From NCBI RefSeq assembly GCF_030756675.1, contig NZ_JAVBXD010000005.1:62001-126000 (forward strand): a DNA stretch of 64,000 nucleotides, written 5' to 3'. This document shows, piece by piece, positions 1 through 3,404 of the stretch; position 1 is the first letter of the stretch, and every line of letters begins with the position of its first letter. The notes beneath the pieces are model-generated. The model had not been told where the DNA came from, ran no database searches, and saw nothing but the letters and a program-made list of their open reading frames with translations. A program made the translations under genes and the position numbers. The DNA comes from Bacillus multifaciens. Its GTDB lineage: Bacteria > Bacillota > Bacilli > Bacillales > Bacillaceae_G.

Positions 1-508
1 CGTCATCGAAGTGCAACCTTCTCTTATGTCGAAAGCTTCACACGTTCCACTATTCCTATCTGTACATAATTCCCTTAGGTTCCCCCTAAATTCCGCCAAG
101 CTTGACTGTGCCTGTAACACAGTATGGATTTTCATAACCAAACGTTTACTCATCCACACTTGGAAGTCCTCTTTGGACCCCGTTACATTTCTGTAACGTG
201 ATATTCTCGAAAAGTCAGTCGAGGGTTCGTCCCAGTGATTCTACTGATTCTAACCATAGGAATTTTATAGACACCAGACCTATCATTCACAGAAGGTTTC
301 TACCTCCCTTTCCTCGTCTTTACGTTAGGGTTAACTTCAGCCTACTTTAACGGGCTTCAAACGATGTTGATGTTTGCAATATCGCTATCGCTTGCCGTAG
401 CTTCAGTGAGTGTGTTTCAGGACGTTACCCCATCATTCCACACTTTGGAATAGCAGTTCTACTAGCAGATGCTAGTGCTTAACCTTTTCAGTTAAGAACG
501 TGTCGCAC
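1..508 (-). mobile_element. Group II intron, 5' part (domain I onward), inserted in polC; runs off the left edge
   Basis: On the minus strand the sequence after the polC exon starts with GTGCGAC, fitting the GUGYG 5' end of group II introns. A short stem (CTTAAC/GTTAAG) follows near the 5' end. At plus 70-92 lies a block reading TTTAGGGGGAACCTAAGGG on the minus strand, resembling the conserved domain I segment of bacterial introns such as Ll.LtrB. AATATC at plus 200-205 can pair with exon GATATT (plus 516-521, exon positions -13 to -8), exactly where IBS2 is expected. EBS1 could not be assigned with confidence. No protein-coding frame of intron-encoded type is seen in these 508 bases, as expected because the reverse transcriptase ORF normally lies in domain IV, which would be outside the window. 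The intron is in the same orientation as polC, as needed for splicing from the mRNA. Confidence 0.85.
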
Positions 509-3404
509 TCAAATCAATATCAGGAACCTTATCTCCTTTAAAACCAAGGAACGTTTCGAACGGAATATCATGACCGTCTTTTTTATATGCAGTTCCACAA
601 TTGGGACAATCTTTATCAGGTAAATCAAATCCCGAACCGACCGAACCATCATTAAAGAACTGAGATTGCTTACAATTTGGACAAACGTAATGCGGCGGCA
701 AAGGATTTACCTCTGTAATTTCCATCATTGTCGCAACAAACGATGATCCAACTGAACCACGTGAACCAACAAGATAGCCATCAATAAGTGATTTCTTTAC
801 AAGCTTATGCGAAATCAAATAAATAACAGCAAATCCATGTCCAATAATACTTTTCAATTCTTTTTCCAGGCGTGCTTCTACAATTTCTGGAAGTTCATCT
901 CCGTAAATACTTCGCGCCATTTCGTAACTCATATCACGCGTTTCATCATCTGCACCTTCAATTTTTGGAGTATAAAGGTCATCTTTTACAGGCTTTACTT
1001 CACCGATCATCGATGCGACTTTTTGCGTATTTGTTACAACAATTTCTTTTGCTTTTTCTTCGCCTAAGAAAGAGAAGCATTCTAACATTTCATCTGTTGT
1101 TCGGAAATACACAGGTGGCAATGAATGACGATTTAATGGATTCGCTCCGCCTTGCGAACTCACTAAAATTTTCCGATACATTGCATCTTCTGGATTTAAA
1201 TAATGAACATTTCCTGTTCCAACAACAGGCTTATCTAACGTTTCACCTAACTTTACTAAGTTAGAAATAATTGTTTTTAATTGACCCTCATCACGAACGA
1301 GTTCAAGCTCTACCAAATGTCGCAACACTTCTGGCGGCATGACCTCAATGTAATCATAAAACTGAGCAATTTCCTCTACTTCTTCTGGTGCCTTTTGCAT
1401 CATCGCTTCAAATACTTCACCTTTATCGCAAGCTGTACCGACCAAAATACCTTCGCGATACTTCTTTAATAAAGAACGCGGAATACGAGGTACACGGTAG
1501 AAATATTGAAGATGCGCGTAAGAAACAAGTTTATATAAATTTTTCAATCCTTCATCCGACGTTGCAAGAAGGGTCACATGACTTGGACGTCCACGTTTAT
1601 ACGCATCTCCTTGTCCCATACTGTCATTTAACTGATCGTGATATTCAAAGCCTTTTTCAATTACATTTTTCAGCATCTTCACAAGCAAATATCCAGTTGC
1701 TTCTGTATCATAAATCGCACGGTGATGTTGTGTTAATTCGATGTCAAGCTTTTTACATAACGTATTTAAACGATGGTTTTTCATCTCTGGAAATAAGAAA
1801 CGAGCCAATTCTAACGTATCGATAACTGGGTTTTTCGTTTTTTCTAATCCACTTTTCTTAAATCCAACGTTTAAAAATCCCATATCAAAGCTTGCATTAT
1901 GAGCAACAAGTGTATGATTCCCAATCCACTGTTCAAACTTTTTAAAGACTTCTTCTACTTCCGGTGCATCCGTAAGCATATCATCTGTAATACCCGTTAA
2001 TTCAATGATTGTTGCTGATAACGGTTGATGTGGATTTGCAAAGGATTCAAAACGATCAATAATCTCTCCGCCCTTTATTTTCACAGCAGCAAGCTCAATA
2101 ACGGTATCATATACAGCTGATAATCCTGTTGTTTCAACGTCAAATACAACATATGTTTCGTCTGCAAGTAATCGATGTTCCTCATTATAAGCAATTGGCA
2201 CACCGTCATTCACAAGATTCGCTTCTACACCAAAAATCACTTTAATTCCTGCTTTTTTTCCAGCAGAATACGCTTCAGGAAAAGATTGCGCAACAGCATG
2301 ATCTGTTACAGCTACCGCTTCATGTCCCCATTTTGCTGCTTGACTCACAAGTGCAGATGCAGATGTTACAGCATCCATTTGACTCATCGGCGTATGCATA
2401 TGAAGCTCTACCCTTTTTTCACCTTCAGGCGCTTTATCTTTACGAGATGGTCCTGTTATTTCATTAATATCGTTTGCTATCATGACTAAATCCCGAACAA
2501 AAGTATCATTTTGAACGGATCCGCGTGCTTTCACCCACATTCCTTTTTTCAATGATTGTAAGAGTGGAATATCTTCTTTATCGCGTGAAAACATTTTAAT
2601 CATAATGGAATCGGTGTAATCAGTTATCTTTAATGTCAATAACGTACGTCCGCTTCGCAGTTCTTTCGTTTCAACATGAAATACATAACCTTGTACTGTT
2701 TTTCTTCGTTCCTCGTCTTGAATTTCACGAAGTGCTGTAATTTCTTCATCAGGCTTAATGAGATAACCGAGGACAATCGGCCCTTCGTGTACAACATCAC
2801 TTTCTTCCGCTTGTTTCTTGGCCATTTCTTCCATAGCTTGTATAACACGCTGACGATCCTCTTGCTGTGTTTGTTCACGAAACCTTTGAACTTCTTCTTC
2901 GTTTTGTTTTATATTTGTTTCTAGCTGAAAACGAGGAAATCCAAAAACTTCATATTGGTCTCCGACTGGCTTCGCAAGATTTTTCTTTAGCGTAGTAGAT
3001 TCTAAATCATTATTCACATCAAGTAACAACTTCACTCCATTTACATGCGGAAGTTGCTTTTTTAAATACGCAAACATAGGCGAGAAAGTAATTCGCTCTG
3101 TACAGAGCGGCCAATACGCCTTGACCTCTTCTTCCGTAAATTGCTTATTCTCTGTTTCTAGTGAAAATGATGTTTTTGCAATATGAGAAAATGACTGCTT
3201 AAGCTGTGTTTCAAGCAATTCATATAATTCTGTTGGTAAAATACGTGGTACTTGTAAATCAAAATGCCAACTCTTATTTGCTTTATCAACAACTAACCTT
3301 TGAATGCCACCACCTTGTAAATATTGATTGATAAGGTCTTCAGGCATTTGTAACTGCTCAAGCAAAATCTGAAATCGCTCTTGTTGTTCGTTTGTTAATG
3401 ACAT
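509..3404 (-). CDS. polC: DNA polymerase III alpha subunit PolC (replicative), exon 1 of an intron-split gene
   Basis: PolC is the essential Gram-positive replicative DNA polymerase with a built-in 3'-5' exonuclease. The start is the ATG at 3404 behind GGAGG. Visible in order: N-terminal and OB-fold region, PHP start (ELHMHTPMSQMD), DEDD exonuclease inserted in the PHP domain (FDVETTGL, AHNASFDMGF, HRAIYDTEATG; about residues 415-580), remaining PHP, then the palm with a zinc site (CPNC...CPNC) and the catalytic PDIDL motif at residues 961-965. The frame leaves the family there: Asn codon position 1 (base 509) is followed by the intron. Unspliced mRNA reads only SATRS and a stop at 492-494. 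Usual length is about 1430 residues, so roughly 465 residues (rest of palm, fingers, C-terminal part) lie beyond the window. A weak TATAAT at 3427-3432 could serve as a -10. Confidence 0.95.

What the first reader, a model, noticed from the sequence alone, without database searches (positions are those of the whole stretch)
1..3404. Essential replicative polymerase gene polC is interrupted by a group II intron next to its catalytic palm motif
The PolC frame is normal for 965 codons, up to PDIDL, which holds the two catalytic palm aspartates (D962, D964). The next codon (Asn, A|AC) is split after its first base by GTGCGAC, the 5' end of a group II intron. Unspliced mRNA would end after five more codons, leaving a polymerase without most of its palm, fingers and C-terminal parts. 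Because PolC is essential, the strain must splice efficiently, trans-complement, or carry a second polC. I recall that group II introns inside conserved DNA metabolism genes have been reported in B. cereus group surveys; I cannot say whether this insertion is among them.
Basis: partly seen in the sequence, partly recalled or inferred. Interest (0 to 1): 0.9.

Follow-up and report, generated by a model that had tools for sequence, protein, structure and literature searches.

The report
Group II intron inside replicative polymerase gene
The gene for this bacterium's main DNA-copying enzyme is cut, right beside its catalytic residues, by a self-splicing mobile RNA element, and relatives carry the same element at the same spot, often after it has lost the helper protein such elements normally use to splice.

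Summary
polC exon 1 (window 3404-509, minus) ends after PDIDL and one base of the Asn codon; a group II intron starts at 508 and runs off the window's left edge (508 nt seen; RF02004, 154 bits). Unspliced, PolC stops after SATRS.

Relatives show what the edge hides. Homologous introns sit at the same nucleotide of polC in 31 other genomes (21 of 261 and 9 of 397 searched, plus Bacillus marasmi). All 31 have domain V/VI and exon 2 in frame at the junction. None has an uninterrupted polC by pattern, against 44 of 45 intron-free controls. Splicing is very probably required for PolC.

The intron looks like a site-specific homing element: no close copy elsewhere in 16 genomes checked, and an intron tree that conflicts with the host tree. 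Its protein is often lost: open frame in 15 of 31, interrupted in 5, deleted in 11. Caryophanon tenue (draft) has no detectable reverse transcriptase and no other above-threshold domain V, so its only polC apparently needs a maturase-free intron. One genome has two group II introns in polC. I found no paper on this, but the main survey is not held. Splicing was not observed.

The parts
509..3404 (-). polC exon 1: 965 codons plus the first base of codon 966 (Asn)
   Evidence: open frame; NCBIfam NF001688 and TIGR01405 above cut-off; PDB relatives 9qpc and 3f2b
510..524 (-). PDIDL, codons 961-965; D962 and D964 are the palm aspartates (catalytic role recalled, not from a call)
   Evidence: translation; the alignment to 9qpc ends in the same PDIDL
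1..508 (-). 5' 508 nt of a group II intron (5' end GTGCGAC), cut off by the window's left edge
   Evidence: 31 homologues at the same nucleotide of polC
264..461 (-). Rfam RF02004 group-II-D1D4-5 match, complete model 1-201
   Evidence: 154.1 bits, E 2.3e-34
492..506 (-). end of the unspliced reading frame (A-T-R-S then TAA at 494-492; the first S, codon 966, spans the splice site)
3487..5184 (-). upstream 565-codon ORF, proS-like (name recalled from the sequence, not searched)

Best explanation
A mobile group II intron whose lineage was found at only one site, in polC, inside the Asn codon next to the two palm aspartates. SHOWN: the 5' part of the intron in the window; homologous introns in 31 other polC genes; exact frame across the gap; a conserved ribozyme fold; no uninterrupted polC in those 31 genomes by pattern; intron and host histories that conflict; repeated absence of an intact intron protein. 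INFERRED: the polC transcript is made with the intron; the ribozyme (domains I, V, VI with a bulged A) excises itself and joins PDIDL to NFSGEYQ, helped by its own reverse transcriptase/maturase where that is intact, by a related maturase in trans or a host factor where it is not, and in at least one species apparently by no reverse-transcriptase-type protein at all. Intact copies retrohome into uninterrupted polC genes of new hosts; since the site codes for catalytic residues it is always there, and imprecise loss would be lethal. Once in place the intron is held by selection for splicing alone, so the protein gene decays while the ribozyme core does not. In the window's strain the same is most likely, but whether its intron protein is intact is unknown.
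For: RF02004 in the window. Pattern over genome contigs (84,980 species by the tool's description): 16 loci, all polC with RF02004. DNA search with the window intron: 21 of 261 genomes of one order, 9 of 397 of another, 1 of 398, the centre itself, in a class-wide sample. All 31 distinct genomes (with B. marasmi) have it at the same nucleotide of polC, phase kept. Uninterrupted-polC pattern: 0 of 31, control 44 of 45. 54 of 137 base pairs show changes on both sides, 99.5% of cells are paired, 0 of 500 shuffles reach this; slid structures pair 36-44%. Domain V/VI: 8 of 28 pairs with both-sided change; unpaired A 8 nt from the 3' end invariant in 31 of 31. ORF-deleted introns keep the fold as well as those with an open frame: 1495 of 1502 against 2045 of 2055 cells; domain V/VI 308 of 308 against 420 of 420. 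Exon 2 stays open for 467-470 codons in 29 of 31. Intron identity exceeds exon 1 identity in 494 of 496 pairs; Kurthia huakuii and K. gibsonii: ORF region 99.6%, exon 1 72.7%. Two hosts with 92.5% identical exon 1 carry introns only 73.6% alike, and holding them together in the intron tree is rejected, p-AU 3.1e-41 (the pair was picked).
Against: No RNA was seen; splicing and homing are inferred. In the window neither domain V/VI nor exon 2 is visible, and its genome is not held, so a second polC or a dead intron in this strain cannot be excluded. Intron RNA is constrained, so part of its excess identity over exons may be slow change rather than transfer (the ORF-region figures and the two pairs with exon above intron identity do not have this problem). 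Exon 2 is not open throughout in 2 of 31: L061 has a frame break in a homopolymer run at codon 78, L067 a second intron. One of the five covariation measures, further pair types, is reached by 70 of 500 shuffles. My scan for EBS/IBS pairings gave several near-equal candidates and settled nothing.
Confidence: 0.87

Rival explanations
1. In the window's strain this polC copy is a dead fragment: exon 2 or the intron's 3' end is missing and another polC or polymerase does the work.
For: Nothing left of base 1 can be read and no genome is held.
Against: Exon 1 is open for 965 codons and scores as PolC; the intron core pairs in 135 of 136 positions; in 31 of 31 relatives no uninterrupted polC was found by the pattern.
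Confidence: 0.05
2. The intron is an ancient, vertically inherited resident of polC in Bacillales, lost in most lineages, not a homing element.
For: One site only; the intron tree keeps some close hosts together (for example G888, G894, G898).
Against: Intron and PolC trees conflict: two hosts with 92.5% identical exons hold introns 73.6% alike; in three pairs of hosts with exon 1 at 63-73% the ORF regions are 93.7-99.6% alike.
Confidence: 0.07
3. Copies without an intact protein are not truly maturase-free: every one is served in trans by another group II maturase, or the missing gene lies in an assembly gap.
For: By my reading, 9 of 16 genomes without an intact own protein hold an uninterrupted relative at 45-49% identity over at least 590 residues. 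The genomes are partly drafts and contigs under 3 kb are not held (tool description).
Against: In Caryophanon tenue (G015) and G046 no reverse transcriptase beyond G046's own remnant was found by protein, PF00078 or TIGR04416, while 7 of 9 genomes and 2 of 4 gave hits; in G015 the polC intron has the only domain V above threshold.
Confidence: 0.45

Closest known systems
Bacterial group II introns with intron-encoded protein (Rfam RF02004/RF00029; NCBIfam TIGR04416; LtrA and GsI-IIC in the PDB)
   Same: 5' GTGYG, domains I to VI, bulged A, 3' AT; the 604-residue protein of Bacillus marasmi: TIGR04416 364.5 bits (cut-off 300), PF00078, PDB matches 5g2x and 6ar1.
   Different: Found at a single site in an essential gene, and 16 of 31 copies have no intact protein frame.
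recA group II intron of Geobacillus kaustophilus (Chee and Takami 2005; seen only as a reference in PMC4424553)
   Same: Group II intron in a conserved DNA-metabolism gene of a Bacillales species.
   Different: Here one intron lineage recurs at the same nucleotide of polC in 31 searched genomes plus the window, often without its protein.
C.te.I1 of Clostridium tetani (PMC3919590, passages)
   Same: [quoted passage not shown] the paper calls it, to its knowledge, the first such bacterial case.
   Different: C.te.I1 lies at a surface-layer locus and splices alternatively; the Caryophanon tenue intron splits the only polC found. Splicing is shown for C.te.I1, not here.
Organellar ORF-less group II introns (review PMC4424553, passages)
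   Same: Introns in housekeeping genes that have lost the protein.
   Different: Bacterial host, and the lineage still contains members with an open protein frame.
Inteins and homing introns in polymerase active-site motifs (recalled, no call)
   Same: Mobile element sitting in a most conserved part of a replication gene.
   Different: RNA-level group II splicing; no protein splicing.

Membership tests
Group II intron | 5' end GUGYG | tested here: met
   GTGCGAC at window 508-502; relatives GTGYGAC (24 of 31), GTGCGTC or GTGCGCC (7 of 31)
Group II intron | domain I to IV fold | tested here: met
   RF02004 154.1 bits; 54 of 137 pairs with both-sided changes
Group II intron | domain V and VI with bulged A and 3' AY, window copy | not testable with these tools
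   lies left of base 1; no genome held
Group II intron | domain V and VI with bulged A and 3' AY, relatives | tested here: met
   31 of 31 by alignment and fold; RF00029 above threshold in 24 of 24 given to Rfam, 7 not given
Group II intron | reverse transcriptase/maturase ORF in domain IV, relatives | tested here: met
   open frame of about 603-608 codons in 15 of 31, interrupted in 5, deleted in 11; one member named by TIGR04416
Group II intron | excision and exon joining | not testable with these tools
   needs RNA; phase is kept across the gap in 31 of 31
Site-specific homing element | same insertion nucleotide in unrelated hosts, no copies elsewhere | tested here: met
   31 of 31 at one site; in 16 genomes no other hit above 78% identity except stretches of at most 41 nt; the other 15 genomes gave one match each at the strict limits
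Site-specific homing element | horizontal transfer | tested here: met
Site-specific homing element | retrohoming activity | not testable with these tools
   needs a mobility assay
IEP-free bacterial intron (C.te.I1 type) | no intron protein anywhere in the genome | tested here: inconclusive
   G015 has no hit, G046 only its own remnant; assemblies may be incomplete and contigs under 3 kb are not held
PolC pseudogene | decayed exons or a second intact copy | tested here: not met
   exon 1 without stops in 32 of 32; exon 2 open in 29 of 31; 0 of 31 uninterrupted copies by pattern. For the window only exon 1 could be tested

The most novel reading that the evidence does not exclude
An essential bacterial replicative polymerase gene depends on a group II intron that has become a maturase-free, splicing-only intron, as in organelles: Caryophanon tenue (and perhaps G046) must splice polC with no reverse-transcriptase-type helper in the genome, and the lineage shows every stage from mobile intron to that state.
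Probability: 0.4. Interest if true: 0.88.

Novelty: new variant of a known kind. Interest (0 to 1): 0.74.

Why it matters
The passages I read say that bacterial group II introns mostly avoid housekeeping genes and that ORF-less ones are rare, with one known case lacking any intron protein in the genome (PMC4424553; PMC6003770; PMC3919590). Here a single lineage sits in the catalytic centre of the replicative polymerase gene in 31 searched genomes plus the window, and parsimony on the intron tree needs at least nine changes between an intact and a lost protein (regains not excluded). That is a natural series for the step from mobile intron to splicing-only intron, the step assumed for organelles and the spliceosome, in bacteria of which several are named culture-collection strains. 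It would also make growth depend on ribozyme splicing, which is directly testable.

Tried and rejected
Chance: rejected by Rfam and covariation. Group I intron or intein: the window's only Rfam matches are RF02004 and an L19 leader, and the frame stops five codons past PDIDL, which an intein could not do. Pseudogene: see the membership test. Phage or plasmid vehicle: no match in 50,697 phage records; 25 plasmid records with group II relatives, two covering 92% of the query at about 66%, the only one above 80% identity covering 19%. A pattern scan of viral contigs gave 4 contigs with related introns, none after the polC motif.

EBS/IBS: scanning 6- and 7-column windows of the intron against the exon end gave many near-equal candidates; not used. 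Leu965 codon: TTG in 28 of 32 intron carriers (window included) against 23 of 44 intron-free sites, Fisher p 0.0013, but the rows are related by descent and 30 of the 45 controls were picked as the best polC matches to the window, so this is only suggestive of a homing-site preference. In one search the window's intron boundary was wrong by three bases; corrected and recomputed. The exact pattern missed 5' variants and undercounts.

Host identity: polC searches of 397 and 398 genomes gave no match above 79% or none at the strict limit (which the tool says shows nothing by itself). Papers; only listings were read except passages of PMC3261151, PMC8725734, PMC4424553, PMC6003770, PMC6542083 and PMC3919590. 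None of what I saw reports a group II intron in polC; PMC3261151, PMC8725734 and PMC6542083 hold neither 'polC' nor 'DNA polymerase' in the main text. The intron B.c.I8 of B. cytotoxicus (543-residue protein; host gene not told in the passages) might or might not be related; not resolved.

Full report
What is in the window. On the minus strand polC begins at 3404 and reads 965 codons to PDIDL. NCBIfam scores it as PolC-type DNA polymerase III (1305.6 bits, profile positions 2-976 of 1445), and the alignment to a solved PolC (9qpc) runs to the same PDIDL. After base 509, the first base of the Asn codon, comes GTGCGAC at 508. Rfam puts group-II-D1D4-5 at 461-264 with 154.1 bits. Unspliced, the frame adds SATRS and stops at 494-492. 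The intron runs off the left edge after 508 nt. No genome is held for the window, so everything beyond base 1 is argued from relatives.

The same intron elsewhere. A degenerate pattern spanning PDIDL, the split codon and GTGYGAC, run over genome contigs (84,980 species by the tool's description), hit 16 stretches. All 16 are polC and all carry RF02004: Lysinibacillus (5), Kurthia (3), Metasolibacillus (2), Caryophanon (2), Metalysinibacillus, Priestia abyssalis, Domibacillus antri, Bacillus marasmi. A DNA search with the window intron then found 21 of 261 genomes of the order of Lysinibacillus macroides, 9 of 397 sampled genomes of the order of Priestia abyssalis and, in a class-wide sample, 1 of 398, the centre genome itself. 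Together with B. marasmi these are 31 genomes, 15 of them unnamed; all 31 have the intron at the same nucleotide of polC. Seven of them start GTGCGTC or GTGCGCC, so the pattern undercounts.

The whole element. In the 31 relatives the intron ends in AT before AY-TTY or AY-TTT-like codons of NFSG[ED]YQ, so the codon A|AY and the frame are restored exactly. Full-length copies are 2651-2677 nt. The protein of B. marasmi (604 residues) is a group II reverse transcriptase/maturase (TIGR04416, 364.5 bits, cut-off 300; PF00078), with a weak C-terminal resemblance to the IscB model (18.3 bits, cut-off 175) that may reflect an HNH domain (inference). Exon 2 stays open for 467-470 codons in 29 of 31. The two exceptions: L061 (G802) breaks frame in a homopolymer run at codon 78, perhaps a sequencing error, and L067 (G234) has a second group II intron.

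The RNA. On 32 introns (31 distinct rows) the consensus fold has 137 pairs; 54 have changes on both sides, 99.5% of cells are standard pairs against 91.0% in shuffles, and no shuffle of 500 reaches the pairing, the double changes or the covariation score. One measure, further pair types, does not stand out (70 of 500 shuffles reach it). Slid structures pair 36-44% of cells. Domain V/VI: 28 pairs, 8 with both-sided changes, and an invariant unpaired A eight nucleotides from the 3' end. RF00029 was above threshold in 24 of 24 relatives given to Rfam; 7 were not given.

It must be spliced. A pattern for uninterrupted polC matched 0 of 31 carrier genomes and 44 of 45 intron-free genomes, once each (the one miss is a 2.1-Mb genome). 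PolC is essential in Bacillus subtilis (established knowledge, no call). So carriers live from the interrupted gene. This is inference from genomes; no RNA was seen.

It moves. Intron identity exceeds exon 1 identity in 494 of 496 pairs. The window intron is 92.8% identical to that of Domibacillus antri while the exons are 65.8%. Kurthia huakuii and K. gibsonii introns are 99.6% alike over the ORF region with exon 1 at 72.7%; two other pairs with exon 1 at 63-66% have ORF regions 93.7% and 94.4% alike. The reverse also occurs: Priestia abyssalis and G399 have exon 1 92.5% alike but introns 73.6% alike, and the intron data reject holding them together (p-AU 3.1e-41; the pair was chosen after seeing the conflict). 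Domibacillus and G357 are the other such pair. The intron tree and the PolC tree (quick method, four long rows flagged) disagree in many places. In the 16 genomes the only near-full-length hits are in polC; others are at most 78% identical, apart from stretches of at most 41 nt. I read this as homing into one site; mobility was not tested.

It loses its protein. In one search, 15 of 31 introns have an open frame of 603-608 codons from the first ATG or from the stop before it (in L072 the first ATG lies 75 codons in; L063 and L067 lack the CHHI string seen in the others), 5 are full length but interrupted (L018, L025, L061, L068, L070), 11 are deleted to 767-1674 nt. Parsimony on the intron tree needs at least 9 changes between intact and lost (direction not fixed), and by my reading the deletion junctions are of at least seven kinds. 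All 11 keep roughly the first 643 and the last 93 nucleotides of the reference intron. Deleted introns keep standard pairs as well as those with an open frame (1495 of 1502, 2045 of 2055; domain V/VI 308 of 308, 420 of 420). This is what selection for splicing without mobility should leave.

Who helps them splice. Of the 16 genomes without an intact own protein, by my reading, 9 hold an uninterrupted relative at 45-49% identity over at least 590 residues that might act in trans; 7 do not (G002, G007, G009, G015, G046, G802, G898), though G002, G007, G802 and G898 have more distant reverse transcriptases. G015, Caryophanon tenue, has no match at all, and G046 only the remnant in its own intron. 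PF00078 found nothing in either, with 7 of 9 genomes positive, and TIGR04416 nothing, with 2 of 4 positive. In G015 the polC intron has the only domain V over the Rfam threshold, with one more match below it; G046 has a second one over the threshold, at C11:50462. Missing contigs remain a caveat.

Against the literature. [quoted passage not shown] The C.te.I1 paper (PMC3919590, passages) calls it the first such case to its knowledge. PMC6003770 (passages) discusses why essential genes are avoided. Searches for polC with group II introns listed no paper that I recognised as a report of this; only the listings were read. Tourasse and Kolsto 2008 is not held, so prior mention in a survey table or in the intron database cannot be excluded.

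Verdict. New variant of a known kind.

Noticed in passing
Only its domain V/VI is matched by Rfam.
   Followed up: partly
L061 (G802), codon 78 of polC exon 2: The frame breaks in a run of G and resumes in another frame; could be a sequencing error or a real lesion.
   Followed up: partly
L059 (G787) 4459-4529: A Bacillaceae-1 RNA (RF01690, 64 bits) lies inside the decayed ORF region of the polC intron; other copies lie outside the intron, downstream, in L060, L062 and L064.
   Followed up: no
G046 C11:50462-50546: A second domain V above threshold in a genome with no detectable reverse transcriptase domain.
   Followed up: no
L104-L107 (IMG/VR contigs): Introns with nearly the same 5' 29 nt and strong RF02004 and RF00029 matches lie in predicted viral contigs; upstream of 2 of 4 (L105, L107) a non-PolC reading frame is open up to the intron. 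Related group II introns may travel in phage-like DNA.
   Followed up: partly
window 26934-26979: L19 ribosomal leader (RF00556, 37.3 bits), ordinary.
   Followed up: no
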